DNA of 64,000 nucleotides from Achromobacter insuavis (lineage in GTDB: Bacteria; Pseudomonadota; Gammaproteobacteria; Burkholderiales; Burkholderiaceae_B). The translations under genes and the position numbers were made by a program. How positions within the stretch are numbered: position 1 is the stretch's first letter; every line of letters begins with the position of its first letter. The stretch spans positions 1-64,000 of the forward strand of contig NZ_CADIJR010000035.1 of the NCBI RefSeq assembly GCF_902859645.1. Direction: 5' to 3'. A model generated the notes under the pieces. It ran no database searches and had not been told where the DNA came from. It worked only from the letters and a program-made list of their open reading frames with translations. Below, in pieces: positions 3-10,649 of the stretch.

Positions 3-1229
3 GCCGGGCGCGGGCTGCCGGGCGCGCCGGCCTGGCTGCCCGGGGTGGGCATGCTCGTGGCGGCCATGCTGTATGGCGGCGCGGCCGCCGCCAGTGAGTC
101 CTGCGCCAGTCCGGACGAACGCTGCCCCTTCGTTTCCGAACTGCTGCAGCAGCGCGAAGGCTATGGCGCCCGCGCCACGGGCGGCCTGGGCGGCAAGTTC
201 ATCGAGGTCACCTCCGACCAGGACGCCGGACCGGGCACGCTGCGCGCGGCGCTGGCGCAGGCCAAGAAGGGACCGACCTGGATCCGCTTCGCCTCGGACA
301 TGACGATCGTGCTGGATTCGCAGCTGCGGGTGCCGTCGAACACCACGATCGACGGCCGCGGCAAGCACGTGGCCCTGATCGACGACGGGCTGGGCGTGTA
401 TGGCAGCAAGAACGTCATCCTTACGCACCTGACCATCGACGGCCGCCTGAACCGGCTGACGCAGGCCGTGAACATCGCCAACGACAGCCGCGACGTGTGG
501 GTGGACCACATGGACCTGTCACGCATGTCCGACCGGCTGCTGAACGTGAAGAACGGCTCCACCGACGTCACGATCTCGTGGACCAAGTTCCACAATTCGA
601 ACAAGGTCATGCTGCTCAACAACATCACCTCGAAGAACCTGTTCGCGAACTACGAACGGGATGCCATCGCGCGCGTGACGCTGCACCACAATTATTTCTT
701 CAACACGGTGCAGCGCAATCCCCGCGGGCAATTCGGCACGTTCCACCTGTTCAACAACCTGCTGGAGAACTGGGATTTCTACGGCATGAGTTTCAGCCTG
801 GAGGCCAAGGCGCTGGTGGAAGGCAACATCTTCAACAATGACGCCAAGCGCCAATGCGTGGAGCCGGAATTCTTTCCCACGGTGGAGGGGGTGAAGGTGA
901 ACTACTGCCGTTATATCCCCACGGCCGCCAAGCGCAGCGCGCTGGACAACGGGGCGTCGGACGAGGGCGCCTACCAGGACTTGAAGGCGGTGCACGGCTA
1001 TACGCGCGACTTCAAGGCGTTCCTGCGCCTGAAGGACAACCTCTACCTGGGGGACGCCAAGCCCGTGCTGCAGGACTACCGTCCCGAGGCCGCGCCGACG
1101 CCGCCGTATTGCTATGGGTACGAGAAACCCTCGGCGGAATTGGCCGACCGGATCCGCAAGCATGCGGGCAACACCAGCGGCGATACGCCGCTGCCGGCAG
1201 CGCGCACCGGCGCGGGCTGCGGCGGCTGA
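3..1229 (+). CDS. Pectate lyase (polysaccharide lyase family 1), 5' end outside window
   Basis: Secreted pectate lyase that would cleave polygalacturonate by calcium-dependent beta-elimination. The right-handed beta-helix core is readable: DVWVDHMDLS carries the family's WxDH motif, followed by VTISWTKFH, then VTLHHNYF and QRNPRGQFGTFHLFNN, which match the conserved HHN and R-x-P regions. A hydrophobic stretch (MLVAAMLYGGAAAA) just before ASESC is the core of a signal peptide. The frame is open to the left edge, with candidate starts GTG at 45 and ATG at 51. Neither leaves a proper basic n-region, so the true start probably lies upstream of the window. About 394 residues are visible, a normal length. 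The first Arg of the R-x-P-R-x-R motif is kept, but the second is Gln (PRGQFG), which is unusual. Family assignment is firm; activity is uncertain. Confidence 0.88.
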   Translation, partial: AGRGLPGAPAWLPGVGMLVAAMLYGGAAAASESCASPDERCPFVSELLQQREGYGARATGGLGGKFIEVTSDQDAGPGTLRAALAQAKKGPTWIRFASDMTIVLDSQLRVPSNTTIDGRGKHVALIDDGLGVYGSKNVILTHLTIDGRLNRLTQAVNIANDSRDVWVDHMDLSRMSDRLLNVKNGSTDVTISWTKFHNSNKVMLLNNITSKNLFANYERDAIARVTLHHNYFFNTVQRNPRGQFGTFHLFNNLLENWDFYGMSFSLEAKALVEGNIFNNDAKRQCVEPEFFPTVEGVKVNYCRYIPTAAKRSALDNGASDEGAYQDLKAVHGYTRDFKAFLRLKDNLYLGDAKPVLQDYRPEAAPTPPYCYGYEKPSAELADRIRKHAGNTSGDTPLPAARTGAGCGG

Positions 1230-2113: not shown

Positions 2114-3241
2114 ATGAAGCAAGCATTTCGTCTGACCCCGATCATCGCGGCCCTGGGCGTCGCCGCGGGGTTGGCGTTCAGCGCCGGCGCGCACGCGCAG
2201 ACCATCAAGATCGGCGTGGTGGGCCCCACCACCGGCGCGGTCACCCAGTACGGCGACATGGTCCGTGAAGGCGTCGACACCGCGGTGGAACGCATCAACG
2301 CCGCCGGCGGCATCAACGGCAAGAAGCTGGAAACCGTGGTCATCGACGACGGCTGCGAACCCAAGCAGGGTCCGGTCGCCGCCAACCGCGTGGTCAACAG
2401 CAAGATCGGTTTCGTCGTGGGCCACGTCTGCTCGGGCGCCACCATCGCCGCCGCCGACATCTACAACAACGAAGGCGTGGTCATGGTCACGCCCTCGGCC
2501 ACGTCGCCGGCCCTGACCGACGGCAAGAACTACGAGTTCATCTTCCGCACCATCGGCCGCGACGACCAGCAGGGTCCCGCCGCCGCCAAGTTCATCCTGG
2601 ACAAGCTCAAGCCCAAGAAGGCCGCCGTGCTGCATGACAAGCAGTCGTATGGCCAGGGCATCGCCACCGCCGTCAAGAACGACCTCGAAAAGGGCGGCGT
2701 GCCCGTCGCCATCTTCGAAGGCATCAACGCCGGCGACAGCGACTACTCGGCCGTCATCACCAAGCTCAAGAGCCAGGGCGTGGACTTCGTCTACTACGGC
2801 GGCTACCACCCCGAAATGGGCCTGCTGCTGCGCCAGGCGGCCGAGCAGGGCGTGAAGGCCAAGTGGATGGGTCCGGAAGGCACGGGCAACCCGGACATCA
2901 ACGCCATCGCCGGCGACGCCGTCGAAGGCATGCTGCTGACGCTGCCGGCCGACTTCACCCAGAACGCCGCCAACGCCGAGATCGTCAAGGCCTTCGCCGC
3001 CAAGAAGCGCAACGCCAGCGGCGCGTTCCAGATGACGGCCTACACCGCCACCCAGGTCATCGCCGACGGCATCAAGGGCGCCGGCAGCGAAGACCCGACC
3101 AAGGTCGCCAAGTACCTGCACGCCAACACGTTCGACACCCCCATCGGCAAGGTGGCCTGGAACAAGCAGGGCGACCTGACGAACTTCCAGTTCGACGTCT
3201 TCGTGTGGCACAAGGACGGCTCGAAGTCCGTTTATAAATAA
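2114..3241 (+). CDS. Branched-chain amino acid ABC transporter substrate-binding protein (orphan LivK paralogue)
   Basis: Periplasmic binding protein of the leucine/isoleucine/valine family (peripla_BP_6), 375 residues. The signal peptide is cleaved after AHA near residue 28, and the mature protein starts QTIKIGVVGPTTG. It shares long identical blocks with the second LivK at 14.2 kb (IDDGCEPKQ, RTIGRDDQQGP, GDSDYSA-ITKLKS, GGYHPE-GLLLRQ), so the two are clear paralogues. A GGGAG ribosome site lies before the ATG. It is monocistronic, with its own terminator downstream and no permease or ATPase genes attached. It probably feeds the livHMGF permease encoded about 13 kb away. Ligand specificity cannot be read from sequence. 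Confidence 0.93.
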   Translation: MKQAFRLTPIIAALGVAAGLAFSAGAHAQTIKIGVVGPTTGAVTQYGDMVREGVDTAVERINAAGGINGKKLETVVIDDGCEPKQGPVAANRVVNSKIGFVVGHVCSGATIAAADIYNNEGVVMVTPSATSPALTDGKNYEFIFRTIGRDDQQGPAAAKFILDKLKPKKAAVLHDKQSYGQGIATAVKNDLEKGGVPVAIFEGINAGDSDYSAVITKLKSQGVDFVYYGGYHPEMGLLLRQAAEQGVKAKWMGPEGTGNPDINAIAGDAVEGMLLTLPADFTQNAANAEIVKAFAAKKRNASGAFQMTAYTATQVIADGIKGAGSEDPTKVAKYLHANTFDTPIGKVAWNKQGDLTNFQFDVFVWHKDGSKSVYK

Positions 3242-3250
3242 GGACTTGGC

Positions 3251-3286
3251 GCGCATCCGGGCGGCTTTCCAGCCGCCCGGATGCGC
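3251..3286 (+). terminator. Perfect 16-bp hairpin after the orphan livK
   Basis: GCGCATCCGGGCGGCT pairs perfectly with AGCCGCCCGGATGCGC across a four-base TTCC loop, starting 9 bases after the livK stop codon. No T tract follows directly, so it may protect the mRNA 3' end rather than terminate by itself. A canonical terminator follows 20 bases later. Confidence 0.7.
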
Positions 3287-3304
3287 CATCCGCCAGACCC
3301 CTCG

Positions 3305-3341
3305 GCCGGGCCGGAAGCGATGTCTTCCCGCCCGGCTTTTT
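3305..3341 (+). terminator. Rho-independent terminator between orphan livK and rstA
   Basis: GCCGGGC pairs with GCCCGGC, and an inner GGAAG/CTTCC stem continues it after a single C-C mismatch. Five Ts follow at 3337-3341. It separates livK transcription from rstAB. Confidence 0.8.
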
Positions 3342-3454
3342 CGTGGGCGCCGCCCGCCGGGAACCGAGCCGTCGCCGGCGGGGTCGAACGCCGCTCGCGC
3401 GGTTTTGCGTAGAATGCGGCGAAATCGCTCTCTCTTTTTCTGTCCGGACACCCC

Positions 3455-4156
3455 ATGACCAAGGCCTTGCTAGTCGAAGACGATCCGAAGCTGTCGCGCC
3501 TGATCGCGCAGTTCCTGGAGCAACACGGGTTCCAGGTCGCCCAGGCCTACCGCGGCGACCATGCGGTGGAGGCGTTCCGCCGCCACGACCCGGCCATCAC
3601 CATCCTCGACCTGATGCTGCCCGGGCGCGACGGCCTGCAGGTCTGCCGCGACCTGCGCGCCTTCTCGTCGGCGCCGATCCTGATGCTGACCGCCCGCGAG
3701 GACGACCTGGACCAGATCCTGGGCCTGGAATCGGGCGCGGACGATTACGTCATCAAGCCGGTCGAGCCGCGCGTGCTGCTGGCCCGCATCCGGGCGCTGC
3801 TGCGCCGTCACAGCCAGCTCGAGGAGCCGCCGGAGCGCCTGGAGTTCGGGCCGCTGGTCATCGACCGGCGCACCCGGGCGGTGATCCACGGCGGCGTCGA
3901 GGTCGACCTGACCACGATGGAATTCGAGATGCTGTGGGCGCTGGCCAGCCAGGCCGGCCAGGTGCTGACGCGCGACGACCTGCTCAACGCGGTGCGCGGC
4001 ATCGAGTTCAACGGGCTCGACCGCAGCGTCGACGTCTGCGTCAGCAAGCTGCGCCGCAAGCTGGACGACGACCCGCGCGATCCGGCGCGCATCAAGACCG
4101 TGTGGGGCAAGGGCTATCTGTTCTCGCCCAAGGCGCACGAGGGCAGCGATGATTAA
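3455..4156 (+). CDS. rstA: Response regulator, OmpR family, RstA-like
   Basis: DNA-binding response regulator of 233 residues. The receiver domain (about 1-115) has acidic residues D9/D10, phospho-acceptor D52 in LDLMLPGRDG and Lys101 in IKPVEP. The C-terminal winged helix (about 135-228) carries GIEFNGLDRSVDVCVSKLRR and ends VWGKGYLFSP, closely matching the E. coli RstA pattern. It overlaps the sensor kinase gene by 8 bases, so the two are co-translated. A TAGAAT -10-like hexamer lies at 3410. Target genes are not known; the pseudo-hydrolase downstream of the pair is a candidate. Confidence 0.92.
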   Translation: MTKALLVEDDPKLSRLIAQFLEQHGFQVAQAYRGDHAVEAFRRHDPAITILDLMLPGRDGLQVCRDLRAFSSAPILMLTAREDDLDQILGLESGADDYVIKPVEPRVLLARIRALLRRHSQLEEPPERLEFGPLVIDRRTRAVIHGGVEVDLTTMEFEMLWALASQAGQVLTRDDLLNAVRGIEFNGLDRSVDVCVSKLRRKLDDDPRDPARIKTVWGKGYLFSPKAHEGSDD

Positions 4157-5441
4157 ATTCGTCCTGCGGCTCTTCGTGGTGCTGGCGGTCGGCTTCGTGA
4201 TTTCCAACGAAGTCGTGGACCGTTCCGCCAACTACCTGTTCGAGCCGGTCAGCGACGCCTATACCCGCGAGTCGGTGCGCGGGCAGATCCATTCCCTGGT
4301 GCTGGAACTGTCGAAGGTCGAGCCGGGCGCGCGCGCGGCTTACATCGAAAAGCAGCTCAAGCCCTACTATGGCCTGGGCCTGCGCGTCTTCAATGCGTCG
4401 GACTACAACGCCAGCGACAGCGAACGGCGCATCGTCGCCCGCGGCGACTTCTTCATCCGCGACAAGATGCAGACCTTCGTGGCCGCGATTCCCGGCCCCG
4501 ACCACCAGTGGCTGGAGGTCAAGCTGCCGCCCGAGCCGTCGTTCGGCCCGTGGGTGGTGGCGGCGGTCTATTCGGCGCTGGGCCTGCTGCTGTGCGCCTT
4601 CATGCTGGTGTGGGCGCTGCCGATCTGGCGCGACCTGGAAGCCCTCAAGACCGCCGCCCTGCGCATGGGGCAGGGCGACCTGGAGGCCCGCGCGCGGCTG
4701 TCGCGGCATTCCAGCATCGGCAACCTGGGCGATACCTTCAACCTGATGTCCGAGCGCATCGCGGCGCTGATCGGCAACCAGCGCGAGCTGACCAACGCCG
4801 TTTCGCACGAGCTGCGCACGCCGATCGCGCGCCTGTCGTTCGAGCTCGACATGATCGGCCGCGCCGACGAGCCGGCCGAGCGCAAGCGCCTGATCGACGA
4901 CATGAAGAGCGACGTCGCCGAGCTCGACAGCATGGCGTCCGAGCTGCTGATGTACGCGCGCCTGGAGCACAAGGGCGATGGCGTCGCGCTGCAGCCGCAG
5001 GACGCCCGCAGCTGGCTCGATTCGGTGGTGCAGCACGCGGGCTTCGAGGCCGACCAGTCCGGCGTGCGCTGCGAGGTGGTGCTGTGCCAGGTGCGCGAGG
5101 TCCACCTGCACCAGCGCTACATGACGCGGGCGCTGCTGAACCTGCTGCAGAACGCCATCCGCTACGCCGGCGGCCGGGTCCAGGTCAGCCTGGTGTCGCC
5201 CGCGCCGCGCGAGTATGTGCTGATGGTCGACGACGACGGCCCGGGCATCCCGCAGGCCGACCGCGAACGCATTTTCGAGCCCTTCATCCGCCTGGACGAG
5301 AGCCGCGACCGCGGCACCGGCGGCACCGGGCTGGGGCTGGCCATCGTCAGCCGCGTGGCGCGCTGGCACAACGGCACCGCCGAGGCCACCGACAGCCCCT
5401 TGGGCGGGGCCCGTTTCATCATCAGCTGGAAGGCGGCCTGA
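4149..5441 (+). CDS. rstB: Sensor histidine kinase, RstB-like
   Basis: Membrane sensor kinase of 430 residues and partner of the preceding RstA-like regulator. TM1 lies at about residues 3-20. A periplasmic sensor of about 110 residues follows, then TM2 at about 135-157 and a HAMP segment. The dimerisation/phospho-acceptor box is NAVSHELRTPIARL with His220. The ATPase domain has the N box NLLQNAIRYA, G1 DDDGPGI and G2 GTGGTGLGLAIV, so it looks fully active. Its start overlaps rstA. The sensed signal is not evident; in enterobacteria RstB is tied to the PhoP/Mg2+ and acid responses, which need not hold here. Confidence 0.92.
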   Translation: MIKFVLRLFVVLAVGFVISNEVVDRSANYLFEPVSDAYTRESVRGQIHSLVLELSKVEPGARAAYIEKQLKPYYGLGLRVFNASDYNASDSERRIVARGDFFIRDKMQTFVAAIPGPDHQWLEVKLPPEPSFGPWVVAAVYSALGLLLCAFMLVWALPIWRDLEALKTAALRMGQGDLEARARLSRHSSIGNLGDTFNLMSERIAALIGNQRELTNAVSHELRTPIARLSFELDMIGRADEPAERKRLIDDMKSDVAELDSMASELLMYARLEHKGDGVALQPQDARSWLDSVVQHAGFEADQSGVRCEVVLCQVREVHLHQRYMTRALLNLLQNAIRYAGGRVQVSLVSPAPREYVLMVDDDGPGIPQADRERIFEPFIRLDESRDRGTGGTGLGLAIVSRVARWHNGTAEATDSPLGGARFIISWKAA

Positions 5442-5481
5442 GGCCGGGGACAGGGGCGCGCCGCATCGATCCGGCCCGCCT

Positions 5482-5499
5482 TTAACAAACTTAACAATC
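5482..5499 (+). promoter_or_regulatory. Tandem 9-bp repeat, candidate OmpR-family operator
   Basis: TTAACAAAC is followed immediately by TTAACAATC, a 9-bp direct repeat. A looser TTCACAAAC lies about 20 bases further on, in an AT-rich island upstream of the pseudo-hydrolase gene and just after rstB. OmpR-family regulators bind tandem repeats of about this period. That RstA binds here is inference. Confidence 0.4.
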
Positions 5500-5601
5500 T
5501 GTCCTTCCAATCTTCACAAACTCCATACAAAGCGGGAAAGATCGGGGACGCGTCCCTGTCTAGCATGACGGCAGTTCTCAAAAGAGGGTTGCCTGTTCGT
5601 C

Positions 5602-6705
5602 ATGTTTTCGCTCGCCCGCCTGGTCGCCGTCGCCATGCTCCTGATCGCCGCCGGCGGTTGCCAGGGCGGGGCCCCGGCCGCGCCGCCGACCATCGCCCGC
5701 GGCGACTATCCGGCGGTAGTGGCGTACCTGAAGCAGCGCATTGCCTATGACCTGGACGCGCAGCGGGTGCCGGGCCTGTCGATCGCCATCGTCGATGACC
5801 AGCGCACGGTCTGGAGCAGCGGCTTCGGCTATGCCGATTCGGCGCGCCATCGCAACGCCACCGGCGACACGCTCTACCGGGTAGGCGCCATCTCCAAGGT
5901 CGTGACCGCCGCGGGCGTGCTGCGCGCCGCCGACGACGGCCGCCTGTCGCTGGACATCCCCGCCGCCCAGGCGCTGCCGCAATCGGCGCTGGAGCCGCGC
6001 CGCGCCGCCATGCACTGGATGGGCACCTATCCCTTCACCGTCCGCCGCCTGCTGGCATTGCGTCCCGACACGCTGGGAGACACCATGGGCCGGGCCCGCG
6101 CCGACATGGGCTACGCCATGCTCGGCGACATGGTGGCGCACGCCGCCGACGAGCCCTTCGACGCCTACGTGCGCCGCACGCTGCTGCAGCCGCTGAACAT
6201 CTCGCGCGCCGGCTTCCGGCTGGCGGCCGCCGGCGACGACGCGCGTGAACTGCGCGCGGCCGGCTACCGCCGCGGCATCCCGTGGGTCGAACAGCCGCAG
6301 CCGAACGAGGCCGCGGAAGGCCTGTGGGCCAGTTCCGCCGAGATGGCGCGTTTCTCCAGCATGCTGTTCGGCGGCGGCACCTACCAGGGGCGCCGCATCC
6401 TCAACGACGAATCCGCGCTCACGCTGCTCAACCTGGAGACGGTGGCCAACGGCATGGACCTGGAGTGCCGCCTGGCGCTGTCGTGGCTGGCGGCGCCCTG
6501 CGATGCCGACTACATCGCCGGCGACGCGCTGCGCGACCACAGTGGCGCGACCGAAGCCTTCCATGCCCGCTGGCTGCTGGCGCCGCGCGAGAAGCTGGCG
6601 GTGCTGGTGATGAGCAATGCCGACAGCGCCGAGCCGCTGGTGGCCTCGGTCTCGACCCTCGCCATGAACCTGATGCGCCAGGCCAAGGGCGTGGCGCAAG
6701 AGTAG
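5602..6705 (+). CDS. Serine beta-lactamase-fold protein with catalytic residues replaced (probable pseudoenzyme)
   Basis: A 367-residue protein of the class C beta-lactamase/D-aminopeptidase (PF00144) family. The N-terminus MFSLARLVAVAMLLIAAGGC looks like a lipoprotein or Sec signal. The fold is clear: PGLSIAIVDD, DTLYRVGAISK, the MGYAMLGDMV helix, PLNISRAGF and HSG at 313-315. The SxxK motif, however, reads A-I-S-K: the nucleophilic Ser is Ala96 (codon GCC at 5887) while Lys99 is retained. The Y-x-N motif position reads R166-A-D168. Two of three catalytic motifs are therefore lost while the frame is intact, which suggests a binding or sensory role rather than decay. It lies 160 bases downstream of rstB. 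Confidence 0.85.
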   Translation: MFSLARLVAVAMLLIAAGGCQGGAPAAPPTIARGDYPAVVAYLKQRIAYDLDAQRVPGLSIAIVDDQRTVWSSGFGYADSARHRNATGDTLYRVGAISKVVTAAGVLRAADDGRLSLDIPAAQALPQSALEPRRAAMHWMGTYPFTVRRLLALRPDTLGDTMGRARADMGYAMLGDMVAHAADEPFDAYVRRTLLQPLNISRAGFRLAAAGDDARELRAAGYRRGIPWVEQPQPNEAAEGLWASSAEMARFSSMLFGGGTYQGRRILNDESALTLLNLETVANGMDLECRLALSWLAAPCDADYIAGDALRDHSGATEAFHARWLLAPREKLAVLVMSNADSAEPLVASVSTLAMNLMRQAKGVAQE

Positions 6706-6770
6706 GCATGCGCCGCGGCAGCCGCGGCGTGGCCCAGTTTTCCCCTCAACCTCGTTTCCCGGATGTTTTT

Positions 6771-7670
6771 ATGAAGCGAAATCTCTCTTTGTCCCTGATG
6801 CAGCGCCGCGCCGGCGCGGCGTGTTTGCTGGCCAGCCTGCCGGTGTTGTCGTTCGCCGCGGGCGGCCAGCAGGTCGCCGACAATTCGGTCTACGGTTCTC
6901 GCGGCGCCAGCTCGCGCGGCATCGAGGTCGCCACCGGCGCCGAGAAGCCGGCCGAGGAGTGGAAGTTCTACGGCACGCTGGGCGTCGGCTACGCGCCGCG
7001 CTACAGCGGCAGCGACGAGAGCTCGGCCCTGCCGATCTTCGGCCTGGGCATCCGCAGCCCGGGCGGCTTCTTCCTGGACACGGCCCACGGCCTGGGCTGG
7101 GAGACGCAGGCGCTCAGCAGCACTTTCCGCTTCTACGTCGCGCCCAGCGCCTCGCGCAAGGACCACAAGAAGGGATTCGAGGGCTCGAACAAGCTGCGCG
7201 GCATGGGCGACATCAAGAGCCGCGCGCAGATCGGCATGGATGCCGAGACGCAGCTAGGCCCGGTGACGCTGTCGGCCACGGTGGCGCACGCATTCAAGAA
7301 GGGCGACGACCGGGACGTGGGCAGCGCCTACACGCTGTTCAACCTGGGCGCCAGCACCACGGTGTACGAAGGTTCGGCGGGCGCGATCTCGCTGGCGCTG
7401 AGCAGCAACTTCGGCGACGGCAACTACATGCGCACTTGGTACGGCGTGAGCGATCGCCAGTCGGCCAACTCGGGCTACCGCCGCTACAACCCCAAGGGCG
7501 GCCTGGAAAGCATCGGCCTGGGCGCGACCTGGGCGCTGCCGTTGAGCAAGGAATGGTCGTGGTCGGTCGCGGCCGAGGCGCGCCGCCTGTATGGCGACGC
7601 GGCCGACAGCCCGATCGTGAAGGATCGCAACCAATACTCGATCGGCACGATGATCACCTACACGTACTGA
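6771..7670 (+). CDS. mipA: MipA/OmpV-family outer membrane protein
   Basis: Outer-membrane beta-barrel of 299 residues with a signal peptide ending near residue 30 (ASLPVLSFAAGG). The mature part has alternating hydrophobic strands, with WKFYGTLGVGYAPRYSGSDE at the start and a C-terminal strand ending in the aromatic pattern YSIGTMITYTY, as expected for BAM recognition. E. coli MipA scaffolds murein enzymes, and other members are antibiotic-responsive porins. ATG 6771 is chosen because the signal peptide begins there; the frame is open further upstream. It follows the pseudo-hydrolase by 65 bases and may share its transcript. Function here is by family only. Confidence 0.85.
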   Translation: MKRNLSLSLMQRRAGAACLLASLPVLSFAAGGQQVADNSVYGSRGASSRGIEVATGAEKPAEEWKFYGTLGVGYAPRYSGSDESSALPIFGLGIRSPGGFFLDTAHGLGWETQALSSTFRFYVAPSASRKDHKKGFEGSNKLRGMGDIKSRAQIGMDAETQLGPVTLSATVAHAFKKGDDRDVGSAYTLFNLGASTTVYEGSAGAISLALSSNFGDGNYMRTWYGVSDRQSANSGYRRYNPKGGLESIGLGATWALPLSKEWSWSVAAEARRLYGDAADSPIVKDRNQYSIGTMITYTY

Positions 7671-7685
7671 GTGTGTGGCGGTAAA

Positions 7686-7709
7686 CGCCCGCCCCGGGCG
7701 GGGCGGGCG
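7686..7709. terminator. GC hairpin between convergent mipA and ugpC
   Basis: CGCCCGCCCC pairs perfectly with GGGGCGGGCG around a GGGC loop. It lies 15 bases past the mipA stop and 53 bases past the ugpC stop, so it can serve both strands. No T tract is present. Confidence 0.55.
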
Positions 7710-7762
7710 GCTGGGGCGGTTCGGCGGGCCATGCGGCCGCCGACGCCGCCCGCGGGGGGGTA

Positions 7763-8851
<1,089 letters not shown>

Positions 8852-8897
8852 GAGTTATTCGTATCGGAGTCGTTGTCGGGTAGGCGATAGGGGAGGG

Positions 8898-9749
8898 TCA
8901 CTTTTCAGTGTCGACCAAGCCCTTGACGAACCATTTCTGCATCAGGATGACGACCAGCGCCGGCGGGATCATCGCCAGCATGGCGGTGGCCATGGTGATG
9001 TTCCATTCGGTCACGCTGTCGCCGCCGCTGATCATCCGCTTGATGCCGATGACGACGGGGTACATGTCTTCCTGCGTGGTCACCAGCAGCGGCCACAGGT
9101 ATTGGTTCCAGCCGTAGATGAACTGGATCACGAACAGCGCGGCGATGCTGGTCTTGGACAGCGGCAGCAGCACGTCGCGGAAGAAGCGCACCGGGCCGGC
9201 GCCGTCGATGCGGGCGGCCTCGATCAGTTCGTCCGGCACCGTCAGGAAGAACTGGCGGAACAGGAAGGTGGCCGTGGCCGAGGCGATCAGCGGCAGCGTC
9301 AGGCCGGCGTAGCTGTTGAGCAGGCCGAGGTCGGCCACCACCTTGTAGGTGGGCGCGATCCGCACTTCGACCGGCAGCATCAGCGTGACGAAGATCATCC
9401 AGAAAAAGAACATGCGGCCGGGGAAGCGGAAATACACCACCGCGAAGGCCGACAGCAGCGAGATCGCGATCTTGCCGATCGAAATCGCCAGCGCCATGAT
9501 CAGGCTGACGTACATCATGCGGCCCACCGGCGCGCCCGAGGAGCCGCCGGAAGAGCCGCCGAACAGCGCCTGCATGTAGTTGTCGACGAAGTGCGGACCG
9601 GGGATCAGCGACATCGGCGCGGAGGCCACTTCCTGCGCGGTCTGGGTCGACGCGACGAAAGTGACGTAGAGCGGAAAGGCCACCATCGCCACCCCGCACA
9701 GCAGGATGACGTGGGCCAGAATATCCAGCCAGGGACGGCGTTCAACCAT
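8898..9749 (-). CDS. ugpE: sn-Glycerol-3-phosphate ABC transporter permease
   Basis: Inner-membrane permease of 283 residues with about six transmembrane segments, starting near residue 12 ([20 protein letters not shown]). The EAA loop reads [24 protein letters not shown], typical of the carbohydrate MalG-type family and the contact point for UgpC. It starts 18 bases after ugpA and forms the heterodimeric channel with it. Confidence 0.92.
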
Positions 9750-9767
9750 TGTTATCTGCCTCGAAAA

Positions 9768-10649
9768 TCAATACTGCACTTTGCGGTCGACGTAGCGGAA
9801 CTGCACGACCGTCAAGGCAATCACAATGAACATCAGCACCACCGACTGGGCCGCGGACGAGCCGAGGTCCAGGCCACGGAAGCCGTCGCTGTACACCTTG
9901 TAGACCAGGATCGAGGTCGACGTGCCCGGGCCGCCCTGCGTGGTGGTGTCCACCACCGCGAAGGTGTCGAAGAAGGCGTAGATGATGTTGACCACCAGCA
10001 GGAAGAAGGTGGTGGGCGACAGCAGCGGGAACACGATGCTCCAGAAGCGGCGCGACGGGCTGGCGCCGTCGATCGCGGCGGCTTCGATGAGCGAGCGCGG
10101 AATCGACTGCAGGCCGGCCAGGAAGAACAGGAAGTTGTACGAGACCTGCTTCCAGACGGCGGCGATCAGCACCAGGATCATGGCCTGGTTGCCGTCCAGG
10201 CGCGGGTTCCAGTCGACGCCGGCCTGGCGCAGGGCCACGGCCAGGATGCCGACCGAGGGCGAGAACAGGAACAGCCACAGCACGCCGACCACGGCGGGCG
10301 CGACGGCGTAGGGCCAGATCAGCAGGGTCTTGTAGAGCCCGGCGCCGCGGATCACGCGGTCGGCCATGACGGCCAGCAGCAGCGAGACGCCCAGGCCGAC
10401 CACGGCGACCAGGATCGAGAACACCGCCGTGACACGGAAGGAATCGAGGTAGGCCTGTTGCGAGAACAGCTCCATGAAGTTGTCGAAACCGACGAACTCG
10501 GAGGACAGGCCGAAGGCATCTTCCAACCGCATCGACTGCCACATGGCCTGGCCGGCGGGAAGGAAGAAGAAGACCACGGTAATGACGATCTGCGGCAGGA
10601 GCAGCAGATAGGGCAGGGTCTTGTGCCCAAAGACAACACGTTTTTCCAT
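9768..10649 (-). CDS. ugpA: sn-Glycerol-3-phosphate ABC transporter permease
   Basis: Inner-membrane permease of 293 residues, MalF-type partner of UgpE. The first TM is at about residues 13-32 ([20 protein letters not shown]), and the EAA motif is [24 protein letters not shown]. It ends [10 protein letters not shown], which matches the UgpA C-terminus. It is separated from ugpB by 236 bases containing two strong inverted repeats. Confidence 0.92.

What the first reader, a model, noticed from the sequence alone, without database searches (positions are those of the whole stretch)
5602..6705. Catalytically dead beta-lactamase-fold protein next to an RstAB two-component system
The SxxK nucleophile is replaced by Ala (A96-I-S-K99) and the Y-x-N position reads R-A-D, while the HSG motif and the overall fold are kept over 367 residues with an intact frame. 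A gene under decay would normally show frameshifts. A preserved fold without chemistry suggests a ligand-binding or envelope-sensing role, perhaps linked to RstB or to the MipA-like protein encoded just downstream.
Basis: partly seen in the sequence, partly recalled or inferred. Interest (0 to 1): 0.7.

Follow-up and report, generated by a model that had tools for sequence, protein, structure and literature searches.

The report
Dead beta-lactamase-fold envelope sensor lipoprotein
A protein shaped like a beta-lactamase but without its cutting chemistry sits in Achromobacter between a two-component sensor and an outer-membrane barrel, and is most likely a shortened relative of MipB, the polymyxin co-sensor lipoprotein of Pseudomonas aeruginosa.

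Summary
Window 5602-6705 encodes a 367-aa lipoprotein with a Pfam Beta-lactamase match (3.5e-35) in an Achromobacter species. Position 96 is Ala, Lys99 is kept, Y-x-N reads R-A-D, H-S-G is kept. Among 32 orthologues position 96 is Ala in 28, Thr in 2, Ser in 2, the latter nested among Ala lineages. Median dN/dS is about 0.24: a conserved pseudoenzyme, not a decaying gene.

The surroundings explain it. The unit rstA-rstB-this gene-mipA matches the published P. aeruginosa parRS-mipB-mipA locus, whose MipB also lacks SxxK. Six of seven Pseudomonadaceae loci fetched hold homologues of all four genes, three in the same order. Promoters share one layout in 39 of 39 sequences. The Achromobacter form lacks MipB's two C-terminal domains and about 30 residues before Y-x-N; its MipA has an N-terminal tail absent in the Pseudomonadaceae MipA compared. 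Against: orthology with MipB is unresolved, and 3 of 16 Pseudomonadaceae relatives keep the catalytic motifs. Most likely role: non-catalytic co-sensor feeding RstB. Paper searches showed me no experiment in Achromobacter.

The parts
3455..4156 (+). rstA-like response regulator (OmpR family), 233 aa
   Evidence: PF00072 + PF00486; best NCBIfam RstA 256.3 bits, below cut-off 330; 62-65% identical to the regulator near mipB in seven Pseudomonadaceae loci
4149..5441 (+). rstB-like sensor histidine kinase, 430 aa, overlaps rstA by 8 bases
   Evidence: HAMP, HisKA, HATPase_c; best NCBIfam RstB 290.5 bits, below cut-off 478; 44-49% identical to the kinase near mipB in seven Pseudomonadaceae loci, apart from one short piece at 42%
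5513..5533 (+). putative regulator box TTCACAAACTCCATACAAAGC upstream of the beta-lactamase-fold gene
   Evidence: same layout in 22 of 22 Achromobacter and 17 of 17 Pseudomonadaceae intervals; only place in the genome that fits the box pattern without mismatch; binding by RstA inferred
5561..5566 (+). TAGCAT, -10-like element 27 bases after the box
   Evidence: -10 role inferred
5602..6705 (+). catalytically dead beta-lactamase-fold (S12) lipoprotein, short MipB-like protein, 367 aa
5659..5661 (+). Cys20 codon of the lipobox (A-G-G-C)
   Evidence: invariant in the 26 rows and the 22 rows; lipid anchor inferred
5887..5889 (+). codon of Ala96, at the place of the catalytic Ser of SxxK
6097..6105 (+). 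R166-A167-D168 at the place of Y-x-N, inside the conserved stretch D160-T-M-G-R-A-R-a-D-M169
6538..6546 (+). H313-S314-G315 at the place of K-T-G
   Evidence: H and G in 32 of 32, S in 30 of 32
6771..7670 (+). mipA, MipA/OmpV-family outer-membrane barrel with an N-terminal tail
   Evidence: PF06629 E 3.6e-38 (on the longer frame 6282-7670); start 6771 chosen by eye from the signal peptide, 6708 is also possible

Best explanation
The gene encodes a short MipB-type lipoprotein: a beta-lactamase/S12 fold that no longer does serine chemistry and serves as a periplasmic co-sensor. In the model, RstA (a ParR-like regulator) activates the promoter between rstB and this gene, so the lipoprotein and MipA are made together when the envelope is disturbed. 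The lipoprotein, anchored by its lipidated Cys20 and mostly paired with the MipA barrel, reports outer-membrane damage or binding of cationic peptides such as polymyxins to the periplasmic domain of RstB, which then phosphorylates RstA. Shown here by sequence: loss of the catalytic motifs, purifying selection, the linked module, the homologous module and promoter layout in Pseudomonadaceae. Inferred: lipid anchoring, RstA binding to the box, contact with RstB and MipA, the ligand, and absence of all enzyme activity.
For: Catalytic Ser absent in 30 of 32 orthologues, and the Y-x-N position is R-(A/S)-D in 32 of 32. Median NG86 dN/dS 0.24 over 496 pairs; on 21 named loci it is 0.237, against 0.193 for rstB and 0.189 for mipA. 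Of 43 genus genomes all 32 carriers have RstB, none of the 8 RstB-less ones has the gene, and 25 of the 32 have mipA next to it. rstAB plus this gene stay together in at least two surroundings. Of seven Pseudomonadaceae loci fetched (of 17 genomes with a match), six (L122-L126, L128) hold a regulator (62-65%), a kinase (44-49%), a MipB-like protein and a MipA, three in the window's order. In 13 of 16 Pseudomonadaceae MipB-like proteins the catalytic Ser is Ala (7) or Gly (6). Shared promoter layout in 39 of 39 intervals; 0 of 100 shuffles in the window. Published MipB lacks SxxK and co-purifies with MipA, and mipBA deletion weakens ParRS signalling to polymyxin B (PMC10936184).
Against: The two C-terminal domains that the published model places at the MipA interface are absent here. 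One clade of Achromobacter and Pseudomonadaceae proteins is only 'not rejected' (AU p 0.411; 4 of the 32 Achromobacter sequences were in that tree), so orthology to MipB is not shown. Window RstB is slightly closer to RstB-like kinases elsewhere in Achromobacter (47-52%) than to the Pseudomonadaceae kinases (44-49%), and groups with them under midpoint rooting. Three of 16 Pseudomonadaceae MipB-like proteins (L104, L107, L110) keep Ser-x-x-Lys, Y-S-N and H-S-G while lying in the module (loci L125, L124, L123), so the module does not exclude an active protein. Seven of 32 carriers lack an adjacent mipA; three of 29 loci keep rstAB without the gene. No further targets of the box stand out: 5 places with up to 3 mismatches, the perfect one included, against 9 for the reversed control. 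The ParR consensus of the paper is in a figure that is not held, so box identity is inferred.
Confidence: 0.7

Rival explanations
1. A ligand-binding pseudoenzyme for peptidoglycan or beta-lactams: the old active-site cleft still binds muropeptides or penicillin without turnover and tells RstB about cell-wall damage rather than about cationic peptides.
For: Lys99, H313 and G315 are in 32 of 32 although the nucleophile is not, so the cleft is partly preserved. D160-T-M-G-R-A-R is invariant. NCBIfam AmpH, a D-Ala-D-Ala carboxypeptidase/endopeptidase, is its second profile by E-value, far below its cut-off (44.5 of 266 bits).
Against: The Tyr and Asn of Y-x-N and the segment before it are gone, which normally shape the ligand site (recalled). 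The nearest characterised system is a proposed polymyxin sensor (PMC10936184).
Confidence: 0.15
2. The protein is still an enzyme with another nucleophile or an altered mechanism (esterase, amidase or transferase).
For: Lys99 and the H-S-G strand are kept. Ser recurs at position 96 in 2 of 32 and Thr in 2 of 32. Three of 16 Pseudomonadaceae relatives keep all three motifs. The family is catalytically versatile (recalled).
Against: 30 of 32 have no Ser at 96; position 98 is Ser in 25 and Thr in 7 of 32; Y-x-N is replaced in 32 of 32.
Confidence: 0.07
3. A gene in slow decay: a former hydrolase that is being lost and is only carried along in the rstAB operon.
For: Absent from 11 of 43 genus genomes. 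dN/dS is higher than for the neighbours livK and ugpC, 0.073 and 0.063. In-frame insertions occur in some species (L033, L034).
Against: No stop inside any of the 32 copies and frames of 364-406 aa. Median dN/dS 0.24, and 0.221 in the clade without mipA against 0.270 in mipA carriers with dS under 0.8. 127 of 367 columns are invariant. The promoter is conserved.
Confidence: 0.05

Closest known systems
MipB of Pseudomonas aeruginosa (PA1797; ParRS-MipBA polymyxin co-sensor, PMC10936184)
   Same: Lipoprotein with a beta-lactamase fold lacking SxxK, encoded beside an OmpR-family two-component system and, in some strains, upstream of mipA; mipA lost in some lineages while mipB stays; similar promoter layout in Pseudomonadaceae homologues.
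   Different: MipB has about 220 extra C-terminal residues (two beta-barrel domains) that the Achromobacter protein lacks. The Pseudomonadaceae homologues keep Y-S-N (16 of 16); here it is R-A-D and about 30 residues before it are missing.
Serine beta-lactamase / S12 family (Pfam PF00144; AmpC, AmpH, PDB 2qmi)
   Same: Profile match over residues 45-345; best solved relative 2qmi; Lys of SxxK and the H-x-G strand kept.
   Different: No catalytic Ser in 30 of 32, no Tyr or Asn of Y-x-N in any of 32; below the cut-off of each of the 25 NCBIfam models shown, of 42 matched.
NlpE-CpxA and similar outer-membrane-lipoprotein to kinase sensing systems
   Same: A lipoprotein reporting on the outer membrane to a sensor kinase; the MipB paper draws the same comparison (section 10 read).
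   Different: Different fold, and the C-terminal barrel that the paper likens to NlpE is not present here; contact with RstB is not shown.

Membership tests
Active serine beta-lactamase / S12 enzyme | Catalytic Ser and Lys of S-x-x-K | tested here: not met
   Ala96 in the window; Ser in only 2 of 32 orthologues; Lys99 in 32 of 32
Active serine beta-lactamase / S12 enzyme | Y-x-N motif | tested here: not met
   R-(A/S)-D in 32 of 32
Active serine beta-lactamase / S12 enzyme | K-T-G or H-x-G strand | tested here: met
   H-S-G in 30 of 32, H-R-G in 2 of 32
PF00144 beta-lactamase fold | Profile score above the curated cut-off | tested here: met
   122.2 bits against 27
MipB (P. aeruginosa type) | Lipoprotein signal with lipobox Cys | tested here: met
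   A-G-G-C20, Cys20 in 26 of 26 and 22 of 22 rows; by eye, no signal predictor run
MipB (P. aeruginosa type) | Beta-lactamase fold lacking S-x-x-K | tested here: met
MipB (P. aeruginosa type) | Two C-terminal beta-barrel domains (about 220 residues) | tested here: not met
   ORF ends at residue 367; the 16 Pseudomonadaceae homologues have frames of 603-622 aa
MipB (P. aeruginosa type) | Gene beside a ParRS-type two-component system and mipA | tested here: met
   rstAB in 32 of 32 carriers, mipA in 25 of 32; matching Pseudomonadaceae loci
MipB (P. aeruginosa type) | One clade with MipB to the exclusion of other S12 proteins | tested here: inconclusive
   AU p 0.411 for one clade; backbone unresolved and long branches present; no named P. 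aeruginosa MipB in the tree
MipB (P. aeruginosa type) | Binds MipA and is needed for kinase signalling to polymyxin | not testable with these tools
   -
RstA/RstB (E. coli type) | NCBIfam equivalog cut-offs | tested here: not met
   RstA 256.3 of 330 bits, RstB 290.5 of 478; the regulators and kinases of loci L122 and L123 score alike

The most novel reading that the evidence does not exclude
The Achromobacter module is a rebuilt MipBA sensor. The lipoprotein lost the two C-terminal barrels that the published model uses to grip MipA, while Achromobacter MipA carries an N-terminal periplasmic tail (S-V-Y-G-x-R-G-A-S-S-R-G in most), present in 20 of 20 Achromobacter MipA compared and absent in 6 of 6 Pseudomonadaceae ones (in-frame stops 27-48 residues upstream leave no room for it). 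The contact would have moved from MipB's C-terminus to MipA's N-terminus, and the dead beta-lactamase domain alone, through its new conserved loop D-T-M-G-R-A-R-a-D-M, would be the part that talks to the kinase.
Probability: 0.3. Interest if true: 0.65.

Novelty: new variant of a known kind. Interest (0 to 1): 0.52.

Why it matters
A 2024 paper described MipA/MipB as polymyxin co-sensors in P. [quoted passage not shown] The evidence here ties that short gene to the same module through its neighbours, its dead active site and its promoter layout. That would extend the sensor to a second genus of opportunistic bacteria, and it gives a natural minimal version in which to ask which part of MipB signals. 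It also warns against annotating this gene as a beta-lactamase or serine hydrolase.

Tried and rejected
Recent inactivation: rejected, since Ala is the prevailing state in the genus tree and the two Ser cases (different codons) and the Thr pair are nested, three changes in all. Acquired or plasmid-borne resistance gene: no close plasmid match, 86 records, all under 60% identity. True RstAB: below cut-offs. Broader regulon of the box: no support beyond the control, except one weaker look-alike before an RstB-like kinase. Looking for a named P. aeruginosa mipB in the plasmid collection gave nothing useful (1156 records, all under 60%). A literature search for pseudoenzyme + 'beta-lactamase fold' + histidine kinase gave 0 papers. 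Searches returned 4, 2, 9 and 3 papers; of these I read parts of PMC10936184 (abstract, sections 7 and 10, passages) and saw passages of PMC12057347 and PMC12607733; the rest I saw as listings only. The first orthologue alignment had minus-strand loci read on the wrong strand and was discarded. NG86 dN/dS on a high-GC genus is rough, and pairs are not independent. Two pieces of a broken mipB (L120, L121) were left out of the tree and of the 16 counted; L121 is one of the 17 Pseudomonadaceae rows. The TTsACA part of the promoter layout was read by eye from the printout, whose script asked only for ACAAA(G/C)C and TAGCAT.

Full report
WHAT IS THERE. Window 5602-6705 (+) is an open frame of 367 aa with a lipobox-like A-G-G-C20 and a Pfam Beta-lactamase match over residues 45-345, E 3.5e-35. 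The closest solved relatives by sequence are serine hydrolases and beta-lactamases of this family, with PDB 2qmi first. Orthologues lie in Achromobacter; of the loci that one search returned, the nearest named are A. dolens, 93%, and A. ruhlandii, 90%. In the genus group of the genome search, 32 of 43 genomes carry the gene. In the wider family search (268 genomes) the only other matches at E <= 1e-15 were five distant proteins with open frames of 607-745 aa.

THE ACTIVE SITE. In 32 orthologues position 96 is Ala 28, Thr 2, Ser 2; Lys99 32 of 32; R166 and D168 32 of 32 at the place of Tyr and Asn of Y-x-N; H313 and G315 32 of 32. Of the 13 more distant homologues set beside them, 11 keep Ser-x-x-Lys and two (L095, L096) have lost both residues. 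About 30 residues before Y-x-N are missing in Achromobacter. On a tree built without codon 96 the non-Ala states need three changes, nested among Ala lineages. So the loss is old in the genus, and a later Ser in two species did not bring back the other motif.

SELECTION. Median NG86 dN/dS is 0.243 over 496 pairs. On 21 named loci: this gene 0.237, rstB 0.193, mipA 0.189 (16 sequences), rstA 0.042, livK 0.073 and ugpC 0.063 (18 each). In the clade without adjacent mipA it is 0.221 over 15 pairs, in mipA carriers with dS under 0.8 it is 0.270 over 203 pairs, so selection does not visibly relax without mipA. 127 of 367 columns are invariant, among them D160-T-M-G-R-A-R and D168-M169 that stand in the Y-x-N region. 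I read this as a functional protein with a new conserved surface; that last step is inference.

THE MODULE. rstA and rstB overlap by 8 bases; 160 bases separate rstB from this gene; mipA follows 65 bases after it if its start is 6771. RstB orthologues (72% or more) occur in 35 of 43 genus genomes and include all 32 carriers; the gene occurs in none of the 8 RstB-less genomes, two of which (G028, G033) are incomplete. mipA is adjacent in 25 of 32. Of the 29 loci compared, 19 have rstA-rstB-gene-mipA between livK and ugpC; L063 has rstAB plus the gene there without mipA; L075 and L076 have only rstAB there; six (L061, L064, L065, L078-L080) have rstAB plus the gene with none of these flanks and no mipA in the stretch; L077 has rstAB alone, also without these flanks. 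mipA adjacency needs two changes on the gene tree. The gene therefore goes with rstAB more tightly than with mipA.

THE SAME MODULE IN PSEUDOMONADACEAE. Starting from a genome picked by its OprF match (1 of 369), 17 of 348 genomes of its family hold a MipB-like match at E <= 1e-35. I fetched seven of the 17 loci. Six (L122-L126, L128) contain a regulator 62-65% identical to window RstA, a kinase 44-49% identical to RstB (one short piece in L124 at 42%), a MipB-like protein of about 600 aa and a MipA; L122-L124 have the window's gene order, in the other three mipB and mipA lie beside the two-component pair on the opposite strand. The seventh (L127) has a broken mipB and no mipA match. Among the 16 MipB-like proteins of normal length the catalytic Ser is Ala in 7, Gly in 6 and Ser in 3; Y-S-N is kept in 16 and H-S-G in 15; the Lys is lost in L117. 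The three with Ser also keep the other motifs and lie in loci L123-L125, so an active protein is not excluded there.

THE PAPER. PMC10936184 (abstract, sections 7 and 10 and passages read) reports that P. aeruginosa MipB is a lipoprotein with a beta-lactamase fold lacking SxxK, with degenerate Y-x-N and K-T-G, and two C-terminal barrels; that it co-purifies with MipA; that mipBA is activated by ParR; that deletion of mipBA weakens ParRS signalling to polymyxin B; and that PAO1 and PA14 have mipB but only a remnant of mipA. [quoted passage not shown]

PROMOTER. The interval between rstB and the gene holds a conserved box. The layout TTsACA-N8-ACAAAsC, then 27 or 28 bases, then TAGCAT, is found in 22 of 22 Achromobacter and 17 of 17 Pseudomonadaceae intervals. 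In the window neither pattern arises in 100 shuffles; the genome has one place (the reversed control also has one, on the other strand). A looser search gives 5 places, the perfect one included, against 9 for the control, so no wider regulon is claimed. That RstA binds here is inferred.

WHAT DIFFERS. The Achromobacter protein lacks the C-terminal domains of MipB. Its MipA has an N-terminal tail in 20 of 20 sequences that is absent in 6 of 6 Pseudomonadaceae MipA (upstream in-frame stops exclude a missed start). This could be a moved interface; it is the most novel reading and is untested. The protein tree neither joins nor separates the Achromobacter and Pseudomonadaceae proteins (AU p 0.411). 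Window RstB is slightly closer to other Achromobacter RstB-like kinases (47-52%) than to the Pseudomonadaceae ones, and the RstB tree has no outgroup.

VERDICT. A conserved pseudoenzyme and most likely a short MipB-type co-sensor of an RstAB/ParRS-like system: a new variant of a system first described in 2024.

Noticed in passing
L135 (own genome, C78:9000-16000), about 2913-4326: An RstB-like kinase (about 50% identical to window RstB) with no RstA match beside it, preceded by CTTCACAATTTCCATACAAAA, a near copy of the box at window 5513. Four further RstB-like loci (L136, L138-L140) also gave no RstA match at E 1e-5 in the stretches fetched.
   Followed up: partly
L095 (G324) and L096 (G343): S12 proteins of 591 and 688 aa frames with G-A-L-T-T and G-A-L-S-T in place of S-x-x-K: a separate case of lost Ser and Lys, with Y-S-N kept; no RstA, RstB or MipA matches in the stretches fetched.
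   Followed up: partly
L033 (G013) and L034 (G006): In-frame low-complexity insertions of roughly 25-40 residues in the loop after the S-S-M-L-F segment of the orthologue.
   Followed up: no
L127 (G780), about 5690-7433: A mipB broken into two frames with no mipA match, beside a regulator and a kinase, in a Pseudomonadaceae genome.
   Followed up: no
L083 (G278), 5478-10637: An S12 lipoprotein with intact catalytic motifs lies between an OmpW-family protein and a SlipAM surface-lipoprotein modifier followed by a TbpB-like protein.
   Followed up: no
window 45-1229: A pectate lyase domain protein (PF00544, E 6.2e-23).
   Followed up: no
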